NCBI GenBank assembly: GCA_023228865.1
Contig: JALOAH010000076.1
Span: 1 to 18,045 of the forward strand
DNA from: Porticoccaceae bacterium
GTDB taxonomy: Bacteria; Pseudomonadota; Gammaproteobacteria; Pseudomonadales; Porticoccaceae
DNA: 18,045 nt
Direction of reading: 5' to 3'
Part shown: piece after piece, positions 5,879 to 16,591 of the stretch
Layout: each line of letters starts with the position of its first letter
Numbering within the stretch: the first letter of the stretch is position 1
Translations under genes and position numbers: made by a program
Notes under the pieces: model-generated
Told to the model about the DNA's origin: nothing
Database searches by the model: none
The model's input: the letters and a program-made list of their open reading frames with translations, nothing else

Positions 5879-7126
5879 TTATTGGCTAGAAAAAATCAGC
5901 CTGGCCGCACTGAGAAGTGCCTCGCGGGGAATAGGTTCGCCATCACAAACAGCCTCATTGAACACCGCCTGACCTTTTATCCACACAGCAAACGCGGTTG
6001 CACTGCCCCGCTCAACCAACAGGGATGTCGGCCAAACCGTCTGGCCGGCTCTGAATGTGCCCCAACCATCGATTTTTCTCAAATGTTCAACCAATGGCCA
6101 CAATTCCCTGCGGCGAGTCGCCAGCAAACAGGCCTGGCCGGTAAGCCGGGCATAATCCACATAGAAACCCGCAGGCCTGTGATCGACCTTGGGCCTGGTT
6201 AACCGTTGCAGAACCGTCGCCCATTCCGACATGTTTTTTTGTTTAACGCCAACGCTTTCATTGAAATTGGGGTCGAGCTCCTTGGGAATATCACGAAGCA
6301 GCGCATGCCACACCGCCTGGTTAACAAAATTGGCCATATTGCCAAAATGGTAGACGATCATCGAAGATGAGGTGCCCGCCCGCTTTGCCAGCCGCCGCTG
6401 ACTCAAAGAGCCAACCCCGTGGGCGAGGATGTCGTCTGCGGCCAGTTCGACCAGGGTTTCGCCCAAATCGTTGACCGCCATTTCCTGGCTAGACTGAAAC
6501 CTTGCCGACCCCTTGTTCAGCCACAAACTCAGGTCGCCATTGCCGGCACTTTCGCCAACACCAAAGCTATTGGCAAGCAGAGCTTTGGTGGTCTCCCGCA
6601 ACAATAATTTGTATTGAACATTATTGGCCAATTCATGGGCGTAGACTTCTTCCATGGCAGAATAAATGGCAATCAGATGGGGAAGAAAACTTTTCGCCAT
6701 AGCCGGATTGGCCAGCTGGCGCTCCCAGAAATTGACCCTGAGCGCCAGCCACCGCTCAAGCTCTGCCCCCGCTTTATGGATCTGGCTGGACTTGAACAGA
6801 ACTTCCGACCAAAAACGGGCAATGGTGAGGTTAGCCCGCTGCTCAACATATGCGGCTATCAACTCAGAAAAATTAGCGTATGAAAATGGCAGGCCATCGA
6901 GCTGGCGGGAGAAATCATCGTGAAATTGAGCCTCGCGCGTCAAAGCAAACGCCAGCGCAGCGTCAAGCAGACCCGCCTTGTTTTTAAAACGCTGAATAAT
7001 GGCCGTTGTTGAACACCCAGCGGCCAAGGCAATTGAGCGCAGGGAAATATCGTCGAGCCCATGGGCGCCTATGGCCTCTATGCTGCATGCCAGTAACAAC
7101 TCGCCAAGAGTATCTGGATCACTCAT
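5879..7126 (-). CDS. Tandem (double) TetR-family transcriptional regulator
   Basis: A 415-residue protein, about twice the usual TetR length, that contains two complete-looking TetR units. Unit 1: HTH at about residues 7-56, with DISLRSIALAAGCSTTAIIQ and the RFKNKAGLLDAAL helix-4 signature. Unit 2: HTH at about 220-270, with SLSQRRLAKRAGTSSSMIVY and HFGNMANFV. Each is followed by a helical region of about 140-160 residues where the ligand domain would be. The ATG at 7126 is preferred over the in-frame TTG at 7132; the ribosome-binding site is weak. The frame runs through the junction without a stop, so this is a genuine fusion. It sits between the ABM gene and the heme-propeller gene and probably controls one or both, plus perhaps the divergent MFS row. 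The ligand is unknown. Confidence 0.88.
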   Translation of the reverse strand: MSDPDTLGELLLACSIEAIGAHGLDDISLRSIALAAGCSTTAIIQRFKNKAGLLDAALAFALTREAQFHDDFSRQLDGLPFSYANFSELIAAYVEQRANLTIARFWSEVLFKSSQIHKAGAELERWLALRVNFWERQLANPAMAKSFLPHLIAIYSAMEEVYAHELANNVQYKLLLRETTKALLANSFGVGESAGNGDLSLWLNKGSARFQSSQEMAVNDLGETLVELAADDILAHGVGSLSQRRLAKRAGTSSSMIVYHFGNMANFVNQAVWHALLRDIPKELDPNFNESVGVKQKNMSEWATVLQRLTRPKVDHRPAGFYVDYARLTGQACLLATRRRELWPLVEHLRKIDGWGTFRAGQTVWPTSLLVERGSATAFAVWIKGQAVFNEAVCDGEPIPREALLSAARLIFSSQ

Positions 7127-7449
7127 CGGCAAACTTACTGCTGTGAGCGTGGCGGCGAGCCATCGCCAACGCCGCTATCGAGAAAAGAAACACCTTTAAA
7201 TTCCTTGCCAGCCATGAACAAATGCAATCACCCCAATATAGACACAGCTTTAATAACGCCGCATCAACCGGTCAGCCGCGAAGGCGACACTTCACCAACG
7301 CACCCCTTGCGGTTTTTTGCGCGATTCTGTGTGCGCTCAAAAAACCGCAAGGGGTGCAATATCCGGGCTGAAATGTTTTGGGACGATCAACGGGCGGCCA
7401 TTATTGTCATAATTCCCGCTTTCGTCCACTTCAAAGGGAAATCTTCCCG
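7127..7449. other. Intergenic stretch between heme-propeller and TetR genes
   Basis: About 323 nt. Its notable content is the long perfect stem-loop at 7301-7356. The open frames crossing it have no recognisable protein or ribosome-binding site, and one on the plus strand simply reads through the palindrome. The TetR promoter is expected between 7127 and 7300, but I could not pick a convincing -35/-10 pair. Confidence 0.5.
7301..7356. repeat. Long perfect inverted repeat (19-bp stem), possible terminator
   Basis: Left arm 7301-7319 (CACCCCTTGCGGTTTTTTG) is exactly complementary to the right arm 7338-7356; the 18-nt loop also contains GCGC on both sides (7319-7322 and 7333-7336). The A/T run is inside the stem on both strands, next to the loop, not after it as in a classical intrinsic terminator. 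It lies about 94 nt after the heme-propeller stop codon, so the minus transcript would form this hairpin. It could be a transcript 3'-end stabiliser, an RNase III site, or a copy of a genome-wide palindromic repeat. Confidence 0.6.
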
Positions 7450-9501
7450 TTAATGCGCCAGGGGATCAGGCCTCACCTGAACCTTGCCCGCATAGCCCTT
7501 TCTGTTTTCAGTGTGAACCATGGGGTCAATGCCGTTGGTAAACCAAAGACCGCGCCCCTTCCAGCCACCATTCTCGTCATCGATGCGGCCATCCATACCC
7601 CTTGTGTAGGTGTTGAGGGGATAGGGTATGCGAATTACGGTGAAGTCTTCCGTGACCGGATTAAAGGCAATCAGGGAGTCCGAATTGGTGCCATTAAAAA
7701 TCACCGTATCCTTACCCAGACCCAGTGTATTAAAGCGATCCACCCATGTGTAGTAGTGCATATCGGTTCCTACGCTGGCACCGGAGTCCAAATTAAAGTA
7801 AGGCGTTGGTGTTTTCCACAGCGTCCAGCCCTCGGGACACTGATCCCCCGCTCCCCAGGTCTGCTTGCATTGACTGTAATCAAAACGCGCCAGATGATTG
7901 CTGCCGGCAAGGGCTGTCCAGACCACGCCCTTGCTGTCGACATCCAACCCTCTCGGACCGTATCCAGGTGCCGGGGGTTTAAAGGCTTCAACCTTCTTGG
8001 TTACCCCATCATAGCGAAGCAGATGCCCAGGGCGATTAGGTTCAGACCACAGCATGCCCGGAGGAATGGATGTCCATACCGAATTGTCCGTGTAACTGGG
8101 CTGAACACCGTAATGAAATCCAGTAATTGCAAGATCCGCCTTACCATCACCATCAGAATCCACTTTGCTTTCCACCCAGCTCTGGGCAGCCTGAAGGCTG
8201 CCTGGTTCATCGGGATTGAATACTTTGGTATCAAAGCGCCCCATGGCTTTGGGATCACCGCTGGTCCAGAGAACATCATTGTTATCAAACTGAAGGTGGT
8301 GGGTACCAAAACAGGTATCCACGGGGACGATATCCCCGGTTTTGGTGTCCAGATAACCCAACTGGCGATGGTGTCCATAGCTGGTGATAAATTCTGACTT
8401 TTTACAAAACTCCGGCAAATCCTCACCCCATTCCCTGCGGATTTGAATAGTCAGCCAAAGCTTACCCTCCGCGTCCAGCATGTGATTGTGAATATTGGCA
8501 GGGTTGTTGTATTTGCCCTCATGAATGGTGGCACCCCCTGGCGCAGGACTCCCCAAGGATCGGCTGCCAAAGAGTGTCGGTTCTCCACCACCGAGTGGCA
8601 CATAGGTGTTCTCTCCCCAAGGGGTAGTCCAGCCCCACTCTTCCATAGGCATTTTGACTTCGTGTGCCGAGTTTTTGACAGGATCCACCCAGAGCACTCT
8701 GTCGTTGGCCATATCTATACCATAGACTGGGCCGTCAGGATAAAGGTAGGGATTGCGCTTATCTGTGGAAATTTCATCATGGGCATAGGTATAGAGATCA
8801 CCCCATCCCCATTGAGTAATCACTATATTTCTTTCAATCCCCTGCGGGCGCGATGGTTGCACCGAGGGTGTTTCACCCTTCACTACACGCTCACCAAAAT
8901 CGCCCATTACATCCAACGTCACATCCCAATCAAGTTCCGAGGCAATTTGGGGCATGATTTCCGCTTTTTTCAACCCCGTCTCATAATGCTCACGGCCTGG
9001 AATAGATCGGGTCACCACACTGCCCAACTGGTGGCAGACGATACAATTAAGCTTAAACTGCGCCAACCAGGTTTCCTGGGAATAGGCGTAATCAAGCTCA
9101 GACACAACATCAGCCGCCGGTGGCTTGACCATGGACAACCAGTAACTGGCCGGGTAAATCGCCGCAGCCTCCTGGCTTGAAGCAGCCGTCCTGGCCAACA
9201 GCGCCACATCATCACCCAAATTGGCTTTTATTTTTTTTGAGTCAACCAGGCCGTAACCCCTGACCCAAAGTTGATAGGATGCATCGGGCAACTGGGGCAG
9301 GACAAATTTGCCCTCGTCATTGGTTACGACAATTTTTCGATAATCTGTCGGCAGATCCGCTGTTTCAGCAATCACCCAGACACCGGCCTCCGGCGCGCCC
9401 TCGCCATTGACCACCCTACCGCTGATAAAGTCGTCTTTGGCAAGAGCCCAAGGGGCTGCCGCCATTGCGATCAAAAACAGGTATGTACTTTTATGGATCA
9501 T
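7450..9501 (-). CDS. Exported heme c protein with carboxypeptidase-regulatory-like and beta-propeller domains
   Basis: A 683-residue exported protein. A signal peptide (YLFLIAMAAAPWALA, cleavage near residue 21) is followed by a carboxypeptidase-regulatory-like beta-sandwich (about 24-95: ISGRVVNGEGAPEAGVWVIA, with the usual DEGKFVLPQLP block). Next is one c-type heme motif CIVCH (about 153-157) with candidate axial methionines near 183 and 199. The rest is a Vgb/streptogramin-lyase-like propeller with repeated units such as GYLDTKTGDIVPVDT, GRFDTKVFNPDEPG, GLDVDSKGVVWTALAGSNH and DSLIAFNPVTEDFTVIRIP. A DSDGDGKADL calcium-type loop occurs at about 448-457. It is periplasmic, probably a redox enzyme or lyase-like protein; substrate unknown. 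The ATG at 9501 is chosen because GAGGTGG precedes it properly; an in-frame GTG at 9510 lies inside that ribosome-binding site. Divergent from the MFS row. Confidence 0.86.
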   Translation of the reverse strand: MIHKSTYLFLIAMAAAPWALAKDDFISGRVVNGEGAPEAGVWVIAETADLPTDYRKIVVTNDEGKFVLPQLPDASYQLWVRGYGLVDSKKIKANLGDDVALLARTAASSQEAAAIYPASYWLSMVKPPAADVVSELDYAYSQETWLAQFKLNCIVCHQLGSVVTRSIPGREHYETGLKKAEIMPQIASELDWDVTLDVMGDFGERVVKGETPSVQPSRPQGIERNIVITQWGWGDLYTYAHDEISTDKRNPYLYPDGPVYGIDMANDRVLWVDPVKNSAHEVKMPMEEWGWTTPWGENTYVPLGGGEPTLFGSRSLGSPAPGGATIHEGKYNNPANIHNHMLDAEGKLWLTIQIRREWGEDLPEFCKKSEFITSYGHHRQLGYLDTKTGDIVPVDTCFGTHHLQFDNNDVLWTSGDPKAMGRFDTKVFNPDEPGSLQAAQSWVESKVDSDGDGKADLAITGFHYGVQPSYTDNSVWTSIPPGMLWSEPNRPGHLLRYDGVTKKVEAFKPPAPGYGPRGLDVDSKGVVWTALAGSNHLARFDYSQCKQTWGAGDQCPEGWTLWKTPTPYFNLDSGASVGTDMHYYTWVDRFNTLGLGKDTVIFNGTNSDSLIAFNPVTEDFTVIRIPYPLNTYTRGMDGRIDDENGGWKGRGLWFTNGIDPMVHTENRKGYAGKVQVRPDPLAH

Positions 9502-11382: not shown

Positions 11383-11916
11383 ATGTCGCATTACTTAAGT
11401 ACTGATGACGACTACCAAATGGGTCCTTATAAGGGCAAGGCTAACCCTCTGGCGTACCCGGAAATTGTCATTAATGATGTCTTTACCAAAGACGAGAAAA
11501 TATGGGTGCCCCTGGGCGACCAAATCTGGTCTCGCCCCCTGTGCTTCAATGTCGCCGAAGGCTATTTCACCCATATTCTCAGGGTTCGCAAAACCGGCGT
11601 ATTTAACCGCCACCGGCACGGCTCTCCTGTTCACGGACTGGTATTGAAGGGCTGCTGGGGCTATCTGGAGCGGGACTGGCTCGCCACCGAAGGCAGTTAT
11701 ATCTACGAACCACCGGGAGACACCCACACCCTTTACCTTCCCGAAGGGGTCGAAGAAATGATGACCTTTTTCTATACCCCGGGATCTTTGGTGTTCGTGG
11801 ATCCAGACGGTAATATGACCGGTTTTGAAGATGTCTTCAAACGCCTGGAAAAATGCCAGGATTATTACGAAGAAATCGGCTTGGGCAGGGATTTTGTCAA
11901 GCAGTTTGTTCGCTGA
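11383..11916 (+). CDS. Cupin dioxygenase of the 2,4'-dihydroxyacetophenone dioxygenase family
   Basis: A 177-residue cupin matching the 2,4'-dihydroxyacetophenone dioxygenase (DAD) family, which uses non-heme iron and O2 to cleave the C-C bond of aryl hydroxyketones. The hallmark block is seen: RHRHGSPVHGLVLKGCWGYL, then LERDW, GSYIYEPPGDTHTL. Candidate iron ligands are H77, H79 and H115, with E96 nearby, positions close to those I recall for the characterised enzyme. Length equals that family. Most members are uncharacterised, so the actual substrate may differ. The start has AAAGGA about 8 nt upstream. The SDR gene begins 26 nt downstream, indicating one transcript. Confidence 0.86.
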   Translation: MSHYLSTDDDYQMGPYKGKANPLAYPEIVINDVFTKDEKIWVPLGDQIWSRPLCFNVAEGYFTHILRVRKTGVFNRHRHGSPVHGLVLKGCWGYLERDWLATEGSYIYEPPGDTHTLYLPEGVEEMMTFFYTPGSLVFVDPDGNMTGFEDVFKRLEKCQDYYEEIGLGRDFVKQFVR

Positions 11917-14523: not shown

Positions 14524-15570
14524 TTATTGGCCGCCGGAACCCAGCGGCATAACCCGCACATCACCAAAATTGACGTCGTATTCATGGGCAGTGAGGAGAA
14601 TGGAACCCCGCCGGGGATTATCTCCAGACTGATACCCCGCAATATCCCAGGCGTCAGGTTCGAGTTCTGACACTGGCCAGACCCTGAGCTGGTAGAGCTC
14701 ATTGCCGTCAACCTCTGTTGTTACCCGCATCCTGAAATAGTAGGTTTCACCTTCCACCAGCTGACGCTCCTGCCTGGCAAGAATATGACTATTGTTGCCG
14801 TAAAGCTCGATACGTCCATGCCGGTACCAGCCTATGCAACCCAAAGGCAGGAAACCTGCCTTGGGCTGAAGGTTTGGAATCGGATTATCCGTATGACCAC
14901 CCCAACGCAGTAAAATGCCCACACCGCCAGACTCTGCGTCAAGATTATGCAGGGTTATGGGTACCAGAATTTCATAATCTTTCCAGTTCATATCTCCCAG
15001 AGCCAAAAACCGGTCATAGCCAGGCTCTTTTGTTCTGGCGCCCTCTGCCACAATTGACCATAGGCCATCTACAGCGCGAGATTTTTCTTGAACGCTCTTT
15101 ACCCTAGCCCAGTCCAACTCAAAAGGTAAAGGCCACATATTACCGGGAAAATAGTCAATTCTTACACTGGCCTCGGCCATACCGCCAGCGACATCAACCG
15201 CCTTGATTACAACACGATTTACACCGGGCTTGAGTTCGTCAATGGCAATATCGATATTGAAATCACCATCATTTTGCAAACGGCGACCGTCCGCCCCCAG
15301 GGACAAGGGTTTTACCACACCCCCATTGAGGCTGTATTCGAAGGTTTTGATTTGGTGATGACTTCGCACATTACCGAGAATATTTTCCCAGATCTGGGAA
15401 ATACCCGGATTTCCCAAAGTTTGCTCGCTGCCATACCAGAGATGAATGCGGGGGACTGTATCACCAGGGGTAGCGTCTTGGCACAGCCCCTGGGATATCT
15501 GACAACATAAGAGTAAAAAGAGCGACCTCAGCGTGAATAGAAAACCTTTTGAGCCAAGGCTGGCCTTCAT
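14524..15570 (-). CDS. Secreted protein with Ig-like and LamG/DUF1080-like parts
   Basis: A 348-residue exported protein that I do not recognise by name. A signal peptide is clear (basic start, then LRSLFLLLCCQISQGLCQ; the cysteine pair in the hydrophobic core is unusual). Residues about 40-150 look like an Ig/FN3-like beta domain ending in NRVVIKAVDVAGGMAEASVRI. Residues about 155-345 look like a concanavalin/LamG or DUF1080-like jelly roll (ILVPITLHNLDAESGGVGIL, ARQERQLVEGETYYFRMRV, ending NFGDVRVMPL). ATG at 15570 is used; an in-frame TTG at 15591 would overlap the MDR stop. It follows the MDR gene by 13 nt, so it is probably in that operon. Likely periplasmic binding or carbohydrate-lipid-type role; not established. 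Confidence 0.72.
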   Translation of the reverse strand: MKASLGSKGFLFTLRSLFLLLCCQISQGLCQDATPGDTVPRIHLWYGSEQTLGNPGISQIWENILGNVRSHHQIKTFEYSLNGGVVKPLSLGADGRRLQNDGDFNIDIAIDELKPGVNRVVIKAVDVAGGMAEASVRIDYFPGNMWPLPFELDWARVKSVQEKSRAVDGLWSIVAEGARTKEPGYDRFLALGDMNWKDYEILVPITLHNLDAESGGVGILLRWGGHTDNPIPNLQPKAGFLPLGCIGWYRHGRIELYGNNSHILARQERQLVEGETYYFRMRVTTEVDGNELYQLRVWPVSELEPDAWDIAGYQSGDNPRRGSILLTAHEYDVNFGDVRVMPLGSGGQ

Positions 15571-15583
15571 CGCTGCCAGTGCA

Positions 15584-16591
15584 CTAATCAATAGCTATGA
15601 CCACTTTGCCAAGGTGCTGGCGAGCTTCGAAGTAACGGAAAGCCTCCACAGCCTCAGAAAAATGGAAAACTCGATCAACCAAGGGCTTGAGTCGGTGAGT
15701 ACTGAGGGCTTTGTTCATGGCGACAAAGTGCTCTCTACTGCCGACGCGAATGGGATGAATCGACTGCATACGGATAAAAAAGTTGTGATCCAATGCAGGC
15801 ATACCGCTGAGCAAACCGATGACACTAATCCGCCCGCCCATACGGGTGGCAGCGACAGATTTTGCAAAGGTTTCACCGCCAGCCACTTCGACCACCACGT
15901 CCGCGCCTACCCCATCGGTGAGCTCAAGGACTGCCTGATCCCAGTCAGGCCTTGTGCGATAGTTAATCACGTCATCAGCACCCAGGGCTTTGAGGGTATG
16001 CAGCTTTTCCTCTGAGGAAGAGGTGGCAATCACTCTGGCGCCAAATAACTTGGCCATCTGCAGGGCAAAGATAGAAACTCCGCCAGTGCCCTGAACGACA
16101 ACTGTTTCTCCAGGACAGAGGGCGTCGTATTGAGTCAGTGCTGTCCAGGCAGTGACGGCGGCACAGGGCAATGTAGCGCCTTGCTCATAGGACATGTAGG
16201 AAGGCAGCAAAACCGCTTCGCTGGCTTTGACACAGACATACTCGGTCAAGACGCCATCCGCATCACCACCGCCGCGGCCAATGGGATTAAGGGAAGGACT
16301 GAACTTCCCGCCAATCCAATCGAGGTGAAAGGTTAATGCCACTCTGTCACCGGCGCCAAACTCGGTAACACCAGCGCCCACAGCGACAACCTCACCGGCG
16401 CCATCGGAAAGCGGTACCAGATTGTTCTTGCGCTCGCCGTAAAGCCCAGTTAGCACCATCAGGTCGCGAAAGTTGAGCGACGCCGCGCGCATTTTGACAA
16501 TAATTTCACCATTCCCCGGCGATTCCGGGCGCACACCAGAAACCTGTTTAATACTGTCAACATCACTACCGCTGAGCACATAGGATTTCAT
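15584..16591 (-). CDS. Zinc-independent MDR-family alcohol dehydrogenase/quinone reductase-like
   Basis: A 335-residue medium-chain reductase. N-terminal GroES-like domain (ASLNFRDLMVLTGLYG, then PLSDGAGEVVAVG with D63-G-A-G), then a Rossmann fold with VVQGTGGVSIFALQMAKLFGA (about 164-185), whose GTGGVS is the cofactor loop, and EKLHTLKALGADDVINY. The catalytic zinc ligands of true alcohol dehydrogenases are not evident, so it is probably an NADPH-dependent enone/quinone reductase type; the conserved zinc-free group acts on ketones and enals. GGAGAG precedes the ATG by about 7 nt. It lies 43 nt after the OYE gene and slightly before the secreted protein gene, forming a minus-strand operon. 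Confidence 0.9.
   Translation of the reverse strand: MKSYVLSGSDVDSIKQVSGVRPESPGNGEIIVKMRAASLNFRDLMVLTGLYGERKNNLVPLSDGAGEVVAVGAGVTEFGAGDRVALTFHLDWIGGKFSPSLNPIGRGGGDADGVLTEYVCVKASEAVLLPSYMSYEQGATLPCAAVTAWTALTQYDALCPGETVVVQGTGGVSIFALQMAKLFGARVIATSSSEEKLHTLKALGADDVINYRTRPDWDQAVLELTDGVGADVVVEVAGGETFAKSVAATRMGGRISVIGLLSGMPALDHNFFIRMQSIHPIRVGSREHFVAMNKALSTHRLKPLVDRVFHFSEAVEAFRYFEARQHLGKVVIAID

What the first reader, a model, noticed from the sequence alone, without database searches (positions are those of the whole stretch)
7450..9501. Heme c embedded in a carboxypeptidase-regulatory/beta-propeller protein
The order signal peptide, carboxypeptidase-regulatory-like domain, CxxCH heme site, Vgb-like propeller is uncommon among characterised enzymes. 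A single covalent heme beside a lyase-like propeller suggests a periplasmic electron-donating oxidation of a substrate before uptake by the divergent MFS protein. It could be a new type of dehydrogenase or C-C/C-O cleaving enzyme.
Basis: partly seen in the sequence, partly recalled or inferred. Interest (0 to 1): 0.75.

Follow-up and report, generated by a model that had tools for sequence, protein, structure and literature searches.

The report
Uncharacterised heme-propeller protein family
This gene encodes one member of a large, scattered and apparently undescribed family of exported bacterial proteins that join a small beta-sandwich, a strictly conserved heme-attachment site and a seven-bladed propeller with conserved pocket-like residues, which looks like an oxidising enzyme whose substrate is unknown.

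The parts
7450..9501 (-). Whole gene (683 aa): signal peptide, CarboxypepD_reg-like sandwich, heme-c domain, seven-bladed propeller
9439..9501 (-). Signal peptide, residues 1-21 (by eye; lower-confidence helix in the model)
   Evidence: sequence
9208..9426 (-). CarboxypepD_reg-like domain PF13620, residues 26-98 (683-aa numbering); holds the family signature GVWVIAET
   Evidence: 29-101 in the 686-aa numbering; conservation
8824..9186 (-). Heme domain, residues 106-226, all-helical in its own model
9031..9045 (-). CIVCH heme-attachment motif, residues 153-157
8953..8955 (-). Met183, candidate axial heme ligand, 136 of 136
7450..8826 (-). Seven-bladed propeller, residues 226-683 and stop, Vgb-like, closed by strand 226-233 (blade assignment by hand)
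8776..8778 (-). Asp242, invariant 136 of 136, in the loop between strand D of blade 7 and strand A of blade 1
8296..8298 (-). His402, invariant 136 of 136, start of strand A of blade 3
8110..8112 (-). Tyr464, invariant 136 of 136, start of strand A of blade 4
7753..7755 (-). Tyr583, invariant 136 of 136, second residue of strand A of blade 6
7585..7587 (-). Arg639, invariant 136 of 136, second residue of strand A of blade 7

Best explanation
A Sec-exported periplasmic oxidoreductase. A small organic substrate binds in the mouth of a Vgb-like seven-bladed propeller, in a pocket built from D242, H402, Y464, Y583 and R639 plus the nearly invariant H241, H338, H401 and R517. Electrons taken from it pass to one covalently bound c-type heme (C153, C156, H157, probably M183 as sixth ligand) and on to the respiratory chain. 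In the window's own clade the product probably enters CoA-dependent catabolism. Shown: the architecture and the conservation of the heme motif and of the strand-start residues. Inferred: export, heme attachment, Met ligation, that these residues form one pocket, redox catalysis and the catabolic role. Unknown: the substrate, any second cofactor or metal, and the heme-to-pocket distance.
For: Heme motif and M183 in 136 of 136 aligned sequences; the one without CxxCH has CxxxCH. The cytochrome c assembly family PF01578 is found in 9 of 10 genomes carrying the protein, the miss being a 1.7-Mb assembly; the same search rings in 9 of 14 control genomes, so this is weak support. Vgb-like propeller. 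At the starts of the seven strands A stand Y260, H338, H402, Y464, R517, Y583 and D637/R639, each 94-100% conserved in 87 sequences. In HMMER's repeat alignment the family's R517 column faces a His of 2qc5 (11.3 bits) and the residue that is His in 2z2n and Ala in 2z2p, whose title names it the inactive H270A mutant (the latter two pieces score below 0 bits). In the four genome loci of the window's seven-member clade (L001, L002, L003, L013) an SDR relative lies nearby in 4 of 4 and a CoA-ligase relative in 3 of 4, against 5 of 75 and 1 of 75 in the rest; the window itself has SDR, CoA ligase, an old-yellow-enzyme relative and a dioxygenase-like cupin.
Against: No activity is known to me for any relative. 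The five invariant residues are no recognised set for a redox cofactor, and direct two-electron oxidation by one Met-ligated heme would be unusual without a second cofactor (general knowledge). Conserved residues of catalytic type (H, D, E, R, K, Y, C) are not clearly enriched in top loops over bottom loops: 14 of 62 against 6 of 36 with loops alone, 20 of 70 against 6 of 36 if the strand starts are added. The predicted heme domain matched no PDB cytochrome, and the window's own heme domain hits no Pfam family at E <= 1. The gene neighbourhood differs between branches of the family.
Confidence: 0.45

Rival explanations
1. Electron-transfer or docking partner: the heme accepts electrons from a separate periplasmic dehydrogenase such as a PQQ quinoprotein, and the propeller only docks it or binds a ligand.
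For: In L036 the order is this protein, amidohydrolase, PQQ dehydrogenase, second copy of this protein, with gaps of a few bases or overlap; L042 and L058 have the same first three genes, L059 the same with an NHL-repeat gene inserted. Ten PQQ-dehydrogenase genes lie within 3 kb in 9 of 79 loci. On a Microvirga ossetica plasmid a short ORF annotated PQQ-dependent sugar dehydrogenase follows the gene.
Against: Ten carrier genomes hold at least 182 PF01011 matches in about 43 Mb, so ten genes in 0.42 Mb of flank is an enrichment of only a few-fold. Two of those 10 genomes have no PF01011 match at E <= 1e-40 (G006, G010), and only 3 of 10 have PqqE over its cut-off; many of these assemblies may be incomplete. 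None of nine window proteins scanned matches a PQQ family. Strand-start residues of the propeller are as invariant as the heme site.
Confidence: 0.25
2. A non-redox lyase or hydrolase of the Vgb kind, in which the heme is structural or a redox or gas sensor.
For: The fold and repeat register are closest to Vgb.
Against: The Vgb family score is far below cut-off (14.1 against 50 bits). The position of Vgb's catalytic His is mainly Arg in the blade that HMMER aligns (R517, 127 of 136; His in 2 of 136). A universally kept heme site and Met would be costly for a structural role (inference).
Confidence: 0.15
3. A sensor or ligand-binding protein: the propeller binds a small molecule and the heme reports it, with no turnover.
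For: Several copies per genome (11 matches in G005, 10 in G002 of which two are pieces of one frame) would suit sensors of many ligands, as they would suit enzymes with many substrates.
Against: No signalling domain was found in the protein; the window's copy stands among catabolic enzymes.
Confidence: 0.1

Closest known systems
Virginiamycin B lyase (Vgb), PDB 2z2n, 2qc5
   Different: The Vgb chains are about 295 residues and align to the propeller only: no sandwich, no heme domain; 14% identity; the catalytic-His position is mostly Arg in the aligned blade
Quinohemoprotein dehydrogenases such as polyvinyl alcohol dehydrogenase (recalled)
   Same: Exported, heme c plus propeller; periplasmic oxidation as a working idea
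   Different: No PQQ-propeller match in this protein; best fold is Vgb-like, seven-bladed
Cytochrome cd1 nitrite reductase and hydrazine synthase alpha subunit (recalled)
   Same: Heme c combined with a propeller
   Different: No Pfam match to a heme d1 propeller at E <= 0.1; different propeller relatives on top
Class I cytochromes c
   Same: CxxCH at the end of a helix and an invariant downstream Met
   Different: In the window the Met lies only 26 residues after the His; no Pfam cytochrome match in the window copy, weak ones in some relatives; no confident PDB fold match

Membership tests
Virginiamycin B lyase (PF24684) | Family score above the curated cut-off | tested here: not met
   14.1 bits against 50
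Virginiamycin B lyase (PF24684) | Seven-bladed Vgb-type propeller fold | tested here: met
Virginiamycin B lyase (PF24684) | Catalytic His/Glu/Mg2+ site (recalled) | tested here: inconclusive
   In the aligned blade the His position is Arg in 127 of 136; blade-by-blade superposition was not possible
Mono-heme c-type cytochrome domain | Heme-attachment motif CxxCH (or CxxxCH) | tested here: met
   136 of 136 aligned sequences, one as CxxxCH
Mono-heme c-type cytochrome domain | Sixth ligand | tested here: inconclusive
   Met183 is invariant; ligation itself was not tested
Mono-heme c-type cytochrome domain | Known cytochrome c fold | tested here: inconclusive
Mono-heme c-type cytochrome domain | Covalent heme present | not testable with these tools
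   Needs heme stain or spectroscopy
PQQ quinohemoprotein dehydrogenase | PQQ-binding propeller (PF01011/PF13360) | tested here: not met
   No match at E <= 0.1
Carboxypeptidase regulatory-like domain (PF13620) | Domain match | tested here: inconclusive
   E 6.5e-7 but 30.1 bits against 32.3; listed in the precomputed Pfam of P0001 and, by my count of the table, of 97 of 120 best hits
Carotenoid-cleavage-type or copper propeller oxidases | Four-His iron or multi-His copper site (recalled) | not tested
   H402 is invariant and H241, H338 and H401 are nearly so, but geometry could not be measured

The most novel reading that the evidence does not exclude
The family is a new class of single-heme periplasmic dehydrogenase: a Vgb-derived propeller, perhaps with a His/Asp-bound metal, oxidises small molecules at its mouth and passes electrons to a heme c held in a helical domain of previously unseen fold, and the family has radiated into many paralogues with different substrates in Acidobacteria and other environmental bacteria.
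Probability: 0.25. Interest if true: 0.8.

Novelty: new variant of a known kind. Interest (0 to 1): 0.52.

Why it matters
A large protein family with a heme site kept in every member examined and conserved pocket-like residues, multicopy in some uncultured soil and marine bacteria, has no assigned activity that I could find. If it is an oxidoreductase, it would add a cofactor arrangement to the known heme-propeller enzymes and give a function to genes now labelled 'streptogramin lyase' or 'hypothetical protein' (labels).

Tried and rejected
Whole-genome search of the window's own assembly: none is held. Viral contigs: no relative encoded, with a single-sequence query that finds close relatives only. 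PADLOC: no match. NCBIfam: no match for this protein at E <= 0.01. PHROGs was not run. Plasmids: one relative at E <= 1e-20, on a Microvirga ossetica plasmid. Papers: seven searches found nothing on a heme-bearing Vgb-type protein (I saw search listings and starts of abstracts only, and read no paper). Searches gave no paper. Searches allowed partial term matches; of 20,231 and 380 papers I saw the top 20 each, general ones by title. Searches gave two papers and one, with no apparent bearing by title. The library is open-access PMC only, so absence there is weak.

Considered and dropped: that CxxCH is a chance motif (conservation rules it out); that L086 lost the heme (it has CxxxCH); that the family is bound to the cupin and MFS; a dedicated PQQ-dehydrogenase partner as the general role. 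A clear top-face enrichment of conserved residues was expected and not found with loops alone. Cytochromes were absent from the PDB list for the heme domain; this does not exclude a cytochrome fold.

Limits: one search scored only the 7999 candidates sharing most words and listed 120. Class- and phylum-wide searches scored at most 3 candidates per genome, so copy numbers there are floors. In one search some intact frames are reported as two matches (two pairs in G008, one in G002). PF01011 counts are capped at 55 scored candidates in four genomes. Organism names are record titles. Strand positions come from DSSP text, not coordinates; my blade assignment is manual. The 136 sequences are the window, 7 database proteins, 79 ORFs over 600 residues and 49 further ones; six shorter or partial rows were left out, three relatives were dropped as duplicates (L100, L107, L109), and L101 and a second short piece in L131 were left out because they did not reach 600 aligned residues.

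Full report

Is the heme site real? As a DNA pattern CxxCH is no more frequent than chance (3 found, 1.52 expected). Conservation settles it: 120 of 120 best hits, the window's own copy included, carry exactly one CxxCH. Of 85 matching ORFs in 79 genome loci, 81 contain one CxxCH; the other four (L045, one of two pieces in L040, a contig-end fragment in L010 and an N-terminal match in L078) do not cover the region. In a wider set with relatives down to 28.7% identity, 136 of 136 aligned sequences keep C153, C156, H157 and M183; the single sequence that lacks CxxCH reads CGLACH, a CxxxCH motif. The cytochrome c assembly family PF01578 is found in 9 of 10 carrier genomes, the exception being a 1.7-Mb assembly; it also rings in 9 of 14 control genomes, so it is only a consistency check. 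Covalent attachment itself is not shown.

Is there an active site? From the model's strands I assigned seven blades by hand. At the start of the seven strands A stand Y260, H338, H402, Y464, R517, Y583 and D637/R639, each 94-100% conserved in 87 sequences. In 136 sequences D242, H402, Y464, Y583 and R639 never vary, and H241 (131), H401 (128), H338 (125) and R517 (127) rarely do. HMMER's alignment puts R517 opposite a His of 2qc5 (11.3 bits) and opposite the residue that is His in 2z2n and Ala in 2z2p, described as the inactive H270A mutant; these last two pieces score below 0 bits. If the register holds, these residues stand where Vgb keeps a catalytic residue. Against this, top loops are not clearly richer in conserved catalytic-type residues than bottom loops (14 of 62 against 6 of 36; 20 of 70 against 6 of 36 with the strand starts). 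C366/C397 and C545/C555 (134 of 136 each) look like two disulfides, in keeping with export (inference).

How widespread? 7985 of the 7999 candidates scored match at E <= 0.001. By record title the 79 genome loci come from Gammaproteobacteria, Acidobacteria, Myxococcota, Thermoleophilia, Dadabacteria, Xanthobacteraceae, Marinimicrobia and others, nearly all metagenome assemblies. The family is patchy: 3 of 369 genomes of the class of G001 (the genome of Luminiphilus syltensis; one match is a 160-residue fragment) and 34 of 297 of the phylum of G002 (a Vicinamibacterales genome), at E <= 1e-30 and with the centre genomes counted. It can be multicopy, with 1 to 11 matches in ten carrier genomes. 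In a tree of 136 sequences the window falls in a 20-member clade (support 0.986) and a 7-member subclade (0.997).

Context. Nine window proteins were scanned: besides this one, a two-TetR regulator, MFS, cupin, SDR, CoA ligase, a zinc-type dehydrogenase, an old-yellow-enzyme relative and one without a match. The cupin's nearest solved relative is 2,4'-dihydroxyacetophenone dioxygenase (E 1.7e-36). At E <= 1e-4 relatives of the cupin are near 0 of 79 and of the MFS near 3 of 79 family loci, so the proposed uptake link is not supported. The four genome loci of the 7-member subclade have an SDR relative in 4 of 4 and a CoA-ligase relative in 3 of 4, against 5 of 75 and 1 of 75 elsewhere, which suggests a catabolic setting for this branch. 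In another branch the protein lies in tight order with an amidohydrolase and a PQQ dehydrogenase (L036, L042, L058, and L059 with one gene inserted). Several carriers are rich in PQQ dehydrogenases, and two of ten have no PF01011 match at E <= 1e-40, so this is not a general partnership.

Verdict. The most likely function is a periplasmic heme-c oxidoreductase (0.45), ahead of an electron-transfer partner (0.25), a non-redox lyase with a structural heme (0.15) and a sensor (0.10). No NCBIfam model matches at E <= 0.01 and no Pfam model covers the whole protein, and seven searches of an open-access library found no description. It is a new variant of a known kind, a heme c joined to a propeller.

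Noticed in passing
window 5879-7132 (-): A 417-residue regulator with two TetR N-terminal stretches, apparently a fused double TetR, downstream of the heme-propeller gene; no relative at E <= 1e-4 in the 79 loci.
   Followed up: partly
window 11383-11916 (+): Cupin related to 2,4'-dihydroxyacetophenone dioxygenase (PDB 4p9g, E 1.7e-36), hinting at side-chain cleavage of an aryl ketone by this cluster.
   Followed up: partly
window 14524-15591 (-): 355-residue protein with no Pfam match at E <= 0.1 and no NCBIfam match at E <= 0.01 and no relative in the 79 loci.
   Followed up: no
L086 (G005:C5:143300-146400): A relative with CGLACH, a CxxxCH heme motif, in a genome with ten other matches to the family. 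Its source record is titled Acidimicrobiia (L057), yet the genome is drawn within the phylum of G002, a Vicinamibacterales genome, so the title may be wrong.
   Followed up: partly
L036:9926-17712: Tight order: heme-propeller, amidohydrolase, PQQ dehydrogenase, second heme-propeller; divergent from glyoxalase-like, DUF1592-type and DUF1552 genes.
   Followed up: partly
L011: Contig from an assembly titled Klebsiella pneumoniae carries a 54%-identical relative; probably a mislabelled or mixed metagenome bin.
   Followed up: no
G002, G004, G005: 54, 39 and 48 PF01011 PQQ-dehydrogenase matches in single genomes of 3 to 6 Mb, with only 55 candidates scored in each, yet PqqE is over its cut-off in G002 alone of these three.
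   Followed up: no
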